Of a stretch of DNA of 26,824 bases, positions 5,029-24,399 are shown in pieces. How positions within the stretch are numbered: the stretch's first letter is position 1; each line of letters starts with the position of its first letter. The position numbers and the translations under genes are program-made. Location of the stretch: NCBI RefSeq assembly GCF_000003605.2, contig NW_003149271.1, positions 450,814-477,637 of the forward strand, written 5' to 3'. The notes under the pieces are model-generated. The model was given only the letters and a program-made list of their open reading frames with translations, had not been told where the DNA came from and ran no database searches. This DNA comes from Saccoglossus kowalevskii (taxonomy: Eukaryota; Hemichordata; Enteropneusta; Harrimaniidae).

Positions 5029-5220
5029 GTGGTTCTCCGGCTCGGAAGGTTTCGACTTCGTTTGAGTCACGGCGTAAACAAGCCACGGCCATTGTAATGC
5101 TGGGTGTAATTGGTGCCGAGTTTGGTGCAGAGATGAACCCAAGTAGGGCCGCATCCAATCGTCGGAGTGTCCAAGAAGCCGGGTTTGGTATCAAAGATTA
5201 CTCTCTTGCACGCCACACAG
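5029..5220 (+). CDS. WDR7: WDR7 exon with the conserved [17 protein letters not shown] block
   Basis: The acceptor is CTACCCTTCAG and the donor is CAG|GTACTT. The exon starts with two bases of a split codon and ends with one, so both flanking introns are phase 1. It encodes a short basic/serine-rich lead ([18 protein letters not shown]), then the strongly conserved helix-rich [19 protein letters not shown] variable stretch follows, ending in YSLARHT, which in human WDR7 also precedes the next exon. An open frame on the opposite strand here is only its shadow. Confidence 0.93.
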
Positions 5221-8200
5221 GTACTTATCATGGGTCTTTATTCATTTGAATTTATTTTATTCTTTGTTGTTATGTTTTATACTTGTCTGATTTCTGTGTG
5301 ATGAATCGGTGAAATGAACAGAGCATGGCATCTTGGGAATCTTCCTGCAACAGACTTTTGTCAGCTTCACAAACTTGGTATGTTCTATGTGCATGATTTC
5401 GCAGTTATGCCTTCTTTCTTTTTGCAATTGATATCGCTTCTACTATGTAGCATGTAATAGTTATGCGGTTGCCTTCCAACTCGACAGTTCTTGGGACGCT
5501 CCACAAAATAATCTTTCCAGCCAGCGAACCCAAAGCTTATAGATTGACCAAAAAGCGGCTGTGGATGTTAAAAACAGAATTTAAATTCTAATTTTTTTAG
5601 TGTATATTTCTTTTTACGTTAATGTTCCTGACAATTGTCTTGTTTGTAAAACTAATATTTCAAATCAATTAAGACATCTAATCAGATTACATATTCTTCT
5701 TGAGGGTTCACTTCATGGGAATATCAAACAGACGGGAGGATGGGGTTTATATTAAAGCGTGGTAGTCGTCGCACTGCGCATGTGCGACATTTGTGTTGAT
5801 AAACTTTGATTTATCCACAATCCAATGCGCTCGTTCAATGGAAATCACAAGTATGAGGTTTTACCTAGGCGCGACTTGCACTAATTACCACCGGTGACTC
5901 TTGATATCTTCCAATCACTTAAAAATACTTATTTTGCTTTAACAAGTCAGTGAAGTTAAAATGAAACTTTTCTACAGCAGAAGAACATTAGGAGGTTCAA
6001 GTCAAATTAAAGATTATATGTTTGGGGTTCTTGTCATCAAGATACTGAAAATAAAATAAATTGGGTCACAGGAAATTTGTCAAGATAAAGAGTCCAAAAT
6101 GTCATGGAAAATGGTCGTAACTGTATTTCTTCTTATCACAAAATTTTTCTTGTTGGCATGAGATGAAAAAAAATCATATTTAAATATTGATATGAATACC
6201 AATATTGTTTGAACATTACTTTAGTGAGTATCTATGGTGATAATAGTTTACCACAATATGCAATGTGAATTTCTCTCCCATAATACATTGCATATATGTG
6301 CAGAAACATGCTCAGTAGTGCAACATTTATTTTCAGCTTATTTACAGAATTATGAGTTAATGTGAAAGTTTATTTGTTTTAACCGACTCACAATCTACTA
6401 TAAACTGATTGATTATAGTGAAATTCATGAGTCAGAAAAATTGCTAAATGTTGATGTATCAGTGACTTTAGTGAAATTTTGTTTCTGTGAAAACGTCAAC
6501 ACATAACGGATATTTCTGTCAGGTTTACAGTACGCAGCTAGAATACCCATGTCTTATTTATACACATGTATCTGTAAAATAAAACAGAGATAGTCAAACC
6601 CATGTTAGTGACCACCTCTATACAAAAACTACCTGATATAGGTTGCCGCACAGTGACGTCATATGTTTACATTGTTGCCAACCAGCTTGTTAGCGTCACT
6701 TTCTGATCAACCAGTTTCTTCACAAATGCACAAAACGTAAACACCCTATAATGACCACATTTAGGTATTTCAAGAGCCAAACATATGAGAATCCTGTGTA
6801 CATAGATCCCCTGTCTTTAATATGATTTTGGTTACCTTATATAAGTGTTTTTTTTTTTGTTTTTTTTGCAACACTACCATCTCATATTATGTCAGTGTTT
6901 ATTCAAAGATTACTTGTTCGTAAAGACCTTTTTAATTAAGGCCTCTGGTTCCTTGGGTGTTCGCTATACGTAGGTTTGACTATATTAATAAACAAGATTA
7001 TTTCTGTACCTGTAATTGAAGAATTATGATAATTACTATAAGCGTCTTATTTTTCATCATTATAAATCAGCATGATATGATAATATGAGAGAAATCACAA
7101 TGAAAAAATTTCCAGAAAGTCGCCGAGACTCGCTGTCTGAAAGATTCCAATGAAATAATCACTGGTTACAAAATTTCACAGTTTCTGACAGTTTCCCCAA
7201 ATTTATGAAAGTTTGAATTAAAGCGGTTAACAGAACTAATGACATTACTTTACAGCAAAAGCATTGTCATTCCTGCTGCTTCATCCCCCGTCATCCAAGT
7301 TACCCGCACATACACCAATACGACGTGCTGCCATTGATCTGATTGGTAGAGGATTTACGGTCTGGGAACCATACATGGATGTGTCGGCTGCGCTACTTGG
7401 AATGTTAGACTTGTGTTGTGACAGCGATAAACATTCCAATGCGTAAGTATTATCATGTTCATATCATCCTAATTTCCGTCATTACTGGCACATTCTTTTA
7501 AACCCTTGTTTTGACTAATATATGTAATAGACCGAGAACTAAGGCAAAGATCAGGGTTTTTTCTCAACCGGGGAACAGGGGCGCAGCACCCTGATACTCT
7601 CGGCTGGCACCCTGATACTCTCGGCTGGCACCCTCTTACCGAATTACAGATTGAACATAAGTATATATCTTGAGCCACGGACTTTCGTGCTGCCGTACTG
7701 TGGTGGGTGAGATAGGGTTGCGTTGTGTAGAGAAATAGACTTCCATGAGAGAAAGTCAGTAAGTAATTAGTCTAATAGTTACGAGGTCAAAGGTTATAGA
7801 ACGAGGCAAGACCAACACCTAACTTGCAACATTAAATGATAAACAAGATACAATGTAATACAATGTTATACAACACAGGTAAACAGTAGAAATCTGAACC
7901 GATGCATGTAAATAAATTTTTAAATGTTGATTGCAACGGAGCTCTCAGCGATACGTACAACATGAAATCTTTCTCAAATATATTTTTCTCCGTGAAAACT
8001 TCCCAGCAACACCACCTGACAATGTGTCTGGACACCAAATACACTAAAATTAGACGATAGATACACCGTTAAAACGGCGCAGAAACCTTCTGATCTGGCG
8101 TTTCCAGGTTGATTCGCCTGTCTGTGCTCCCTCTTTGGTTATTTTAGAAAAAACCTGAAAGACATTAACATCGTTAATCAGTATACTGTCAACATCTCTG

Positions 8201-24000: not shown

Positions 24001-24399
24001 ATAATCCAGCCCAGTAATGCACAATACCTTGTTGAGCAGACATGTTACAGTTGTTTGACCCGCTCACAAATTAAAAGTGATCGACACCAACACCCCTCAA
24101 TGGAATAGCCATTCCTAAAATCTATCAATGCAAAAGCTGATAGGACTTTGTCCACAAATGGGAGTTATTATGAGAAAATATTGACCACTAAATGCACTAA
24201 TCTGATAGGCTGATAGAAGTATGAGGTATAATATGTTTTTATTTACCTTAACTCGACCATTTTTGACATATTGTGAGACCACGGCACTTCTGTAGACGAG
24301 GTATATAGAGTGAATGCTTGACCCACTGGCATATTTTTTTGCATCGTTTCCACACCATCATGACCCATGTAAGTCTTGGAAATAGGAAAAGGAGGAAGC
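20723..24399 (-). CDS. ST8SIA3: ST8SIA3-like alpha-2,8-sialyltransferase, three exons, N-terminal exon missing
   Basis: This is a CMP-sialic acid:glycan alpha-2,8-sialyltransferase (GT29) of the Golgi lumen. Exons 24399-24247, 22790-22230 and 21002-20723 join in phase to 330 residues plus a split codon. Counting from the first full codon: stem region 1-105; sialylmotif L about 112-162 ([20 protein letters not shown] ... MNP); motif S about 252-276 (TTGLFMYTIAVPICDEIRLY, GFYPF); motif III HYYN at 288-291; VS motif HKMPE at 303-307 with catalytic His 303; C-terminal KCKG with the conserved Cys at 328. Three N-glycosylation sequons (NMS, NFT, NDT) are visible. Residues such as WQLVKFDFSDKKYVF and LVDFLTEH match ST8SIA3 better than ST8SIA2/4 as I recall them. 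Human ST8SIA3 is 380 residues, so about 50 residues, including the signal anchor, are missing. All three observable introns are phase 2. Confidence 0.93.
21003..22229. repeat. ST8SIA3-like intron filled with degenerate interspersed repeats
   Basis: Repeated words such as CAAGTTTCAAAGCAGTCAAG, ACAAAGTTTCAAGCCATTTG, CTAAGTTTCAATGCATC and CCAAGTTTCATTTCAATTCA recur every 100-350 nt with TTAATTAG/TTAATATG blocks between. The reverse complement of about 21545-21780 matches the internal unit of the 10137-10673 element (GATATCTTCAATTCTC; AGATTTGTTCATTTCATG; GTAGGTACTAC). No coding content. Confidence 0.6.
22230..22790 (-). CDS. ST8SIA3: ST8SIA3-like exon carrying sialylmotif L
   Basis: The acceptor is GTTAATTTCAG (22801-22791) and the donor is AAAGG|GTGAGT. 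The exon starts RLLRKYFYVIKRVS ahead of an internal ATG, which is therefore not the start codon. It contains DVKPWQLVKFDFSDKKYVFP, LLPKDSPLINRKYKT, the donor-binding sialylmotif L (conserved Cys, GSSGIL, CGAEID, RCN, DVG, MNP) and AILWSPAL, which corresponds to the AILWIPAF segment of ST8SIA3. It ends MRYIKG, running into the next exon as GFWKISHNF. Confidence 0.95.
23322..23334 (-). promoter_or_regulatory. CTCF-like motif
   Basis: The minus strand reads CACAAGAGGGCGC, matching the CTCF core pattern CANNAGRGGGCGC. It lies in an ST8SIA3-like intron. Confidence 0.35.
23696..23737. repeat. (CA)n microsatellite with GCAC interruptions
   Basis: ACACACACACACACACACAC, then GCATGCACGCACGCAAACAC. Confidence 0.93.
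23924..23961. repeat. Short ACCG/ACCA tetranucleotide tract
   Basis: GACCGACCGACCAACCGACC followed by AGCCAACCAACA is a cryptic tetranucleotide repeat. Confidence 0.75.
24247..24399 (-). CDS. ST8SIA3: ST8SIA3-like stem exon
   Basis: The acceptor on the minus strand is TCTATTTTTGACAG and the donor is TTAAG|GTAAAT. The 153-nt exon has one leading and two trailing codon bases. It encodes LPPFPISKTYMGHDGVETMQ, then KNMPVGQAFTLYTSSTEVPW, then SHNMSKMVEL, with one N-glycosylation sequon (NMS). This is the lumenal stem. The tryptophan-asparagine pattern before the L/R-rich helix resembles the WKFN segment of human ST8SIA3. No open frame of note covers it. It was found from splice signals and phase. 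Confidence 0.85.

What the first reader, a model, noticed from the sequence alone, without database searches (positions are those of the whole stretch)
5029..24399. Ancient WDR7-ST8SIA3 linkage, in convergent orientation
The window places a WDR7 3' end 4.9 kb from the 3' end of an ST8SIA3-like gene. In human both genes map to 18q21.31 with very little between them (from memory). Such a pair in an invertebrate would be a conserved microsynteny older than vertebrates. The orientation here is tail-to-tail, whereas I recall the human genes as lying on the same strand, so one gene may have been inverted while the linkage was kept. Retained linkage can reflect regulatory elements of one gene embedded in the other. 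Both genes act in the neuronal secretory pathway (vesicle acidification; Golgi sialylation), but a functional reason is speculation.
Basis: partly seen in the sequence, partly recalled or inferred. Interest (0 to 1): 0.7.

Follow-up and report, generated by a model that had tools for sequence, protein, structure and literature searches.

The report
Old gene neighbours, WDR7 and ST8Sia
In this animal's DNA, the end of a gene for acidifying cell compartments lies 4.9 kb from the end of a gene for adding sialic acid, a neighbourhood also kept in vertebrates, so the pairing is probably ancient, though related linkage was already in print and nothing here shows that it serves a purpose.

Summary
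Six spliced exons on + encode the C-terminus of WDR7 (stop 15784-15786), including one too short for the 60-aa ORF list (14370-14474). Three exons on - encode an alpha-2,8-sialyltransferase (stop 20725-20723). All internal splice sites are GT/AG. The stops lie 4,936 bp apart, tail to tail, with no assembly gap between. The sialyltransferase matches human ST8SIA3 best in the PDB (E 1.3e-72) and shares two insertions with it that five other human paralogues (typed from recall) lack; but the tree does not separate 'sister of III' from 'sister of II/IV' or a stem position, and the invertebrate-only ST8Sia EX group could not be tested. A 2020 paper says wdr7, onecut2 and fech flank st8sia3 throughout vertebrates; a 2008 paper puts ST8Sia III/III-r genes and orthologues of their vertebrate neighbours on one amphioxus scaffold. 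So linkage older than vertebrates was largely in print; the close convergent pair here appears to add a case. The human orientation, and adjacency in other invertebrates, could not be tested: no animal genome was searchable. Most likely: retained ancestral linkage plus a local inversion. A regulatory reason (WDR7 as bystander of Onecut) is plausible but untested.

The parts
5029..5220 (+). WDR7 coding exon ([20 protein letters not shown] ... SLARHT)
   Evidence: AG/GT borders, in-frame join; aligned to recalled human WDR7
7256..7442 (+). WDR7 coding exon ([16 protein letters not shown] ... DKHSN)
   Evidence: AG/GT borders
8844..9114 (+). WDR7 coding exon ([11 protein letters not shown] ... 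ADLLVE)
   Evidence: AG/GT borders
9775..9957 (+). WDR7 coding exon (VMDIIVHCL ... TAKCQ)
   Evidence: AG/GT borders
14370..14474 (+). WDR7 coding exon with a WD40 repeat ([35 protein letters not shown]); below the 60-aa cut
   Evidence: AG/GT borders; Pfam WD40 in the joined protein, E 1e-08
15598..15786 (+). last WDR7 coding exon, stop TGA 15784-15786
   Evidence: first AATAAA downstream at 15899
15787..20722 (.). 4,936-bp convergent intergenic stretch, no N; no gene seen by Pfam (0 of 16 open frames) or Rfam
20723..21002 (-). last ST8Sia coding exon: sialylmotifs S (RITTG...CDEIRLYGFYPF), III (HYY), VS (HKMPEE) and the C-terminal Cys; stop TAG 20725-20723
   Evidence: Pfam PF00777
22230..22790 (-). 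ST8Sia coding exon: region upstream of motif L, sialylmotif L ([32 protein letters not shown])
24247..24399 (-). ST8Sia coding exon, stem region
   Evidence: AG/GT borders and matching phase; its later part (from residue 24 of the model) is inside the alignment to ST8SIA3 5bo8; no Pfam match of its own

Best explanation
The window shows an ordinary pair of host genes of an animal, most likely a non-vertebrate deuterostome. One is WDR7 (presumably the single ancestor-type gene of vertebrate WDR7 and WDR72; rabconnectin-3 beta, a V-ATPase assembly factor). The other is an ST8Sia, most likely of type III, an alpha-2,8-sialyltransferase of the Golgi. They sit tail to tail because a WDR7 - ST8Sia linkage already present before the vertebrates was kept, and one of the two genes (or a small segment) was inverted in this lineage or in that of the vertebrates. 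The gene pair itself is shown; common descent of the linkage is inferred from published vertebrate and amphioxus synteny; the inversion rests on a recalled human orientation. No special mechanism is needed: slow loss of local gene order is enough.
For: Gene models with canonical splice sites and no N between the genes. ST8Sia: best PDB match is the ST8SIA3 chain 5bo8, E 1.3e-72, with no gap over query residues 24-229; the next enzyme is ST3Gal I at 3.3e-13 (that 5bo6-5bo9 are human ST8Sia III is stated in a table of PMC10225777). All four sialylmotifs and the C-terminal Cys are present. Identity to human III 118/275, II 104/274, IV 103/274, VI 82/270, I 81/269, V 77/270 (I, II, IV, V and VI typed from recall). 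Two loops have the longer form of III and not of the other five: 30 against 29 residues from the TK anchor to LLP, and a two-residue insertion, EHQDKLK here and EHRGQLK in III (alignment). WDR7: 211/369 identical to recalled human WDR7. Published: wdr7 beside st8sia3 in vertebrates (PMC7014012); ST8Sia III/III-r, II/IV and EX genes with neighbours on B. floridae scaffold 66 (PMC2564942); [quoted passage not shown] Chance (my estimate, with an assumed 20,000 genes in random order): about 2/20,000 for one given ST8Sia gene beside WDR7, about 28/20,000 for any of 14 (27 sequences from two invertebrates).
Against: The tree does not exclude that the gene branches with (II,IV) (AU p 0.372) or on the branch between the I/V/VI and II/III/IV groups (0.124 and 0.131, the same tree written twice), and support for it with III is only 63. 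Three other spacings do not fit III better than the rest: YW to RxTG 11 here, 10 in all six; GF to HYY 16 here and in five, 17 in III; HYY to HxMPxE 15 here, 17 in III, 16 in II and IV, 12 in I, V and VI. The EX group, which lies on the same amphioxus scaffold, could not be tested. Only one genome was looked at. The names of the amphioxus neighbours are in a figure that is not held. In human, from memory, the two genes are close but hundreds of kb apart.
Confidence: 0.72

Rival explanations
1. Genomic regulatory block: WDR7, ST8Sia and Onecut stay together because enhancers of Onecut (or of ST8Sia) lie in or beyond WDR7, which is a bystander. The block was copied in the vertebrate genome duplications into WDR7-ST8SIA3-ONECUT2 and WDR72-ONECUT1.
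For: st8sia3 has wdr7 and onecut2 around it in vertebrates (PMC7014012). In chick, WDR72 (a paralogue of WDR7, recalled) is the neighbour of Onecut1, and 98 conserved or accessible regions, in a stretch from the last WDR72 intron to Fam214a, were screened for reporter activity (PMC7082998, passages; I did not see which of them were active). Bystander genes are an accepted reason for some kept gene pairs (PMC8851819, passages).
Against: No Onecut gene was seen in the window, no conserved non-coding element could be tested, and the convergent pair is compact (4.9 kb) with repeats in the intergenic stretch. If the orientation did change, a strict constraint on order is less likely.
Confidence: 0.15
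2. The ST8Sia gene is not the orthologue of ST8SIA3 but another member (EX type or a stem gene) of a tandem ST8Sia cluster beside WDR7; the cluster as a whole, not the III gene, is the old neighbour. This would change the name of the gene, not the ancient linkage.
For: EX, II/IV and III/III-r genes share amphioxus scaffold 66, read by its authors as tandem duplication. The tree does not exclude a stem place.
Against: Closest to III in identity and in two insertions.
Confidence: 0.2
3. The adjacency is a coincidence of this lineage, or a product of assembly.
For: Only one genome was seen.
Against: No N between the two genes, and the single gap is inside a WDR7 intron. Prior odds of about 1e-4 to 1e-3 for a pair named beforehand by vertebrate synteny (my estimate).
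Confidence: 0.06
4. The pair is kept because the two proteins work together (vesicle acidification and Golgi sialylation).
For: Both act in the secretory pathway (family knowledge; rabconnectin-3 titles and abstract starts in the listing).
Against: No shared promoter region (tail to tail). I found no published functional link, but looked little: of the 7 papers that hold both names I read passages of one.
Confidence: 0.02

Closest known systems
Vertebrate wdr7 - st8sia3 - onecut2 - fech synteny block (PMC7014012, section 2.3, passage)
   Same: WDR7 and an ST8Sia III-type gene are neighbours.
   Different: Here tail to tail with 4.9 kb between stops; in human, from memory, same strand and far apart. 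No onecut2 or fech was seen in this window.
Branchiostoma floridae scaffold 66 with ST8Sia EX, II/IV (Bfl-20) and III/III-r (Bfl-12, Bfl-17) genes and orthologues of their neighbours (PMC2564942)
   Same: An invertebrate ST8Sia III-type gene near orthologues of genes that flank the human ST8SIA genes.
   Different: Only one ST8Sia gene in this window; whether WDR7 is among the named amphioxus neighbours could not be read.
WDR72 - Onecut1 neighbourhood in chick (PMC7082998)
   Same: Probably a duplicated copy of the same block, with a WDR7-family gene (inference).
   Different: No ST8Sia gene in the passages seen.

Membership tests
GT29 sialyltransferase | Pfam PF00777 above cut-off | tested here: met
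   E 2.1e-54, 185.2 bits against cut-off 23
GT29 sialyltransferase | sialylmotifs L, S, III and VS | tested here: met
   Motif strings found at residues 112, 250, 288 and 303 of the 330-aa model (patterns written by me from the human alignment)
GT29 sialyltransferase | N-terminal membrane anchor | tested here: inconclusive
   Seven hydrophobic open frames listed in 24400-26824, none accepted; the first exon may lie outside the window
ST8Sia family | C-term motif Cys and closest match among sialyltransferases | tested here: met
   Cys at 328 of 330; ST8SIA3 E 1.3e-72, ST3Gal I 3.3e-13, ST6Gal I 1.5e-12, ST6GalNAc II 2.6e-11
ST8Sia III / III-r | branches with III in a tree | tested here: inconclusive
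   Best placement, support 63, AU 0.728; sister of (II,IV) AU 0.372; branch between the two large groups 0.124 and 0.131; with II alone, IV alone, I, or V/VI rejected (p below 2e-4 each). Seven sequences in all, five typed from recall
ST8Sia III / III-r | subfamily motifs III-1 and III-2 of PMC2564942 | not testable with these tools
   The logos are in a figure that is not held. Upstream of motif L the identity is 23/57 to III, 18/56 to II, 16/56 to IV, 11/55 to I, 10/56 to V, 6/56 to VI
ST8Sia EX | branches with EX of amphioxus and sea urchin | not testable with these tools
   No EX sequence at hand
WDR7 (rabconnectin-3 beta) | C-terminal region and WD40 repeats of WDR7 | tested here: met
   211/369 identical to human WDR7 typed from recall, so the reference itself is unchecked; Pfam WD40 E 1e-08. 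In the PDB: WD40 proteins in the best 60 of 333 matches shown, none named WDR7, and no match for the 231 residues mostly before the WD40 repeats
WDR7 against WDR72 | closer to one of the two vertebrate paralogues | not tested
   No WDR72 sequence at hand
Ancient microsynteny pair | adjacency in several distant genomes | not testable with these tools
   No animal genome searchable; the genome search unanswered eight times. Literature only

The most novel reading that the evidence does not exclude
[quoted passage not shown] the block outlived both vertebrate genome duplications and, here, an inversion. This window would be an unusually compact form of it.
Probability: 0.15. Interest if true: 0.6.

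Novelty: new member of a known kind. Interest (0 to 1): 0.33.

Why it matters
If other invertebrates show it too, the pair dates the ST8SIA3 neighbourhood to before the vertebrates, helps to sort ST8Sia subfamilies where sequence trees are weak, and names a small block (WDR7 - ST8Sia - Onecut) in which the bystander model can be tested.

Tried and rejected
Looking for relatives in held collections: ST8Sia exon in viral contigs (8 pattern stretches, 0 relatives) and in genome contigs (33 stretches, 0 relatives), WDR7 exon in viral contigs (12 stretches, 0 relatives). These collections are of viruses, bacteria and archaea, so this says nothing on synteny. PDB search for WDR7: WD40 proteins only among the 60 of 333 matches shown; no match for the stretch mostly before the WD40 repeats. 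First ST8Sia exon: seven hydrophobic open frames in 24400-26824 were listed and none accepted. A possible further WDR7 exon at 2240-2284 has splice-like borders but no check, and was left out. A gene hidden between the two: not found. One search, on single open frames, gave PF00777 for two ST8Sia exons and only weak, below-cut-off matches for one WDR7 exon; joining the exons was needed.

Papers: all 10 searches used. WDR7 with ST8SIA3: 7 papers, of which I opened one, the synteny paper; WDR7 with microsynteny: 1, on fungi; ST8Sia with sea urchin, genome and WDR7: 0; three of WDR7, ONECUT2, synteny, deuterostome: 1, the same paper. I found no paper that names a WDR7 - ST8Sia pair in an invertebrate, but figures and supplements were not readable and subscription papers are mostly missing. 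What I saw: PMC7014012 passages and one section; PMC2564942 abstract, sections 5 to 8 and passages; PMC7082998, PMC6387029, PMC10225777, PMC5811610 and PMC8851819 passages; all others the search listing with the start of the abstract.
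Full report
What is there. The + strand carries the last six coding exons that could be called for WDR7 (5029-5220, 7256-7442, 8844-9114, 9775-9957, 14370-14474, 15598-15786) and the - strand carries three coding exons of an alpha-2,8-sialyltransferase (24399-24247, 22790-22230, 21002-20723). All internal borders are AG/GT and all phases join. 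The stop codons, TGA at 15784-15786 and TAG at 20725-20723, leave 4,936 bp between them. The only assembly gap, 630 N at 12226-12855, lies inside a WDR7 intron and between two pieces of a 29-bp tandem array, so both 3' ends are on one stretch without N.

One WDR7 exon, 14370-14474, lies in an open frame too short for the 60-aa list. I looked for it because the human WDR7 sequence that I recall has a WD40 stretch between ...GKCQ and ...FWQ; the stop-to-stop scan of 9960-15600 held one such stretch, and its borders are canonical. This is a small independent check on the identity of WDR7. The joined 374-aa protein is 211/369 identical to the recalled human sequence. In the PDB the matches shown (best 60 of 333) are WD40 proteins, none named WDR7, the 231 residues mostly before the WD40 repeats match nothing, and Pfam sees WD40 repeats, so the name WDR7 rests on recall. 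WDR7 and WDR72 are vertebrate duplicates (recalled), and the gene here is best called WDR7/72.

The sialyltransferase. Pfam PF00777 matches at 2.1e-54. In the PDB, the ST8SIA3 chain 5bo8 matches at 1.3e-72, without a gap between query residues 24 and 229, far ahead of ST3Gal I (3.3e-13), ST6Gal I (1.5e-12) and ST6GalNAc II (2.6e-11). No other ST8Sia is in that listing of 8 sequences, so this says ST8Sia, not III. Spacing upstream of motif L agrees with III and not with the other five (30 against 29 residues), and the alignment shows a second insertion shared with III alone (EHQDKLK here, EHRGQLK in III). Not in favour of III, or neutral: PA(F/L) to (Y/F)W is 43 here, 42 in III, 41 in the rest; YW to RxTG is 11 here and 10 in all six; GF to HYY is 16 here and in five, 17 in III; HYY to HxMPxE is 15 here, 17 in III, 16 in II and IV, 12 in I, V and VI. 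The likelihood tree (LG+G4, 290 columns) puts the gene with III at support 63. The AU test keeps sister-of-III (0.728), sister-of-(II,IV) (0.372) and the branch between the I/V/VI and II/III/IV groups (0.124 and 0.131, the same tree written twice), and rejects pairing with II alone, IV alone, I, or V/VI. So: not a mono-sialyltransferase of the I/V/VI group, most likely type III, a stem gene not excluded, EX untested.

The species. Not identified. GT29 enzymes are described as widespread in deuterostomes, with only ST6Gal of arthropods among protostomes (passages of PMC5811610, 2018), and 43% identity to human ST8SIA3 is low for a vertebrate (inference). A non-vertebrate deuterostome fits. The own genome could not be searched.

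Known synteny. PMC7014012 states that the synteny around st8sia3, including wdr7, onecut2 and fech, is highly conserved from fish to mammals. PMC2564942 places human ST8Sia III on chromosome 18q, and reports that B. floridae scaffold 66 holds ST8Sia EX genes, orthologues of II/IV (Bfl-20) and III/III-r (Bfl-12, Bfl-17) and of their neighbouring genes, from which it draws an old tandem cluster; [quoted passage not shown] PMC7082998 shows WDR72 as the neighbour of chick Onecut1. Together these make a WDR7/72 - ST8Sia - Onecut linkage before the vertebrate genome duplications likely (inference).

Why kept. Three readings: no reason beyond slow loss of gene order (my first choice); a regulatory block with WDR7 as bystander (15%); shared function (2%). 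The window cannot tell these apart. The intergenic stretch holds repeats, poly(A)-type hexamers on both strands, the first at 15899 for WDR7 and 20580 for ST8Sia, and no gene that Pfam (0 of 16 open frames of 60 aa or more) or Rfam can see.

Verdict. A correct and careful observation, a sound but partly published inference, and no evidence for a mechanism.

Noticed in passing
321-1541: Minisatellite of a 20-bp unit, about 61 copies, giving a spurious 448-aa open frame at 308-1654.
   Followed up: no
12045-12225 and 12857-12928: A 29-bp tandem array on both sides of the 630-N gap, so the gap probably holds more of the same array.
   Followed up: partly
2723-2960: 34-bp tandem array, 7 copies.
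   Followed up: no
11185-11367, 13702-13824, 15339-15511, 24920-25102: Dispersed repeat of about 120-180 nt in four places: three in WDR7 introns and one upstream of the first called ST8Sia exon; MITE-like by eye (families D3 and D4).
   Followed up: no
16520-16582 and 16923-16985: 63-nt inverted repeat, 90% complementary, 340 nt apart, in the intergenic stretch: perhaps a foldback element (I2).
   Followed up: no
8656-8788 and 19219-19356: A second dispersed repeat, one copy in a WDR7 intron and one between the genes (D7 and D8).
   Followed up: no
10234-10453 and 21607-21786: Related stretches in opposite orientation, one in a WDR7 intron and one in an ST8Sia intron (I1, I3, I4): a third dispersed element.
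   Followed up: no
2240-2284: Possible further upstream WDR7 exon with splice-like borders; not verified.
   Followed up: partly
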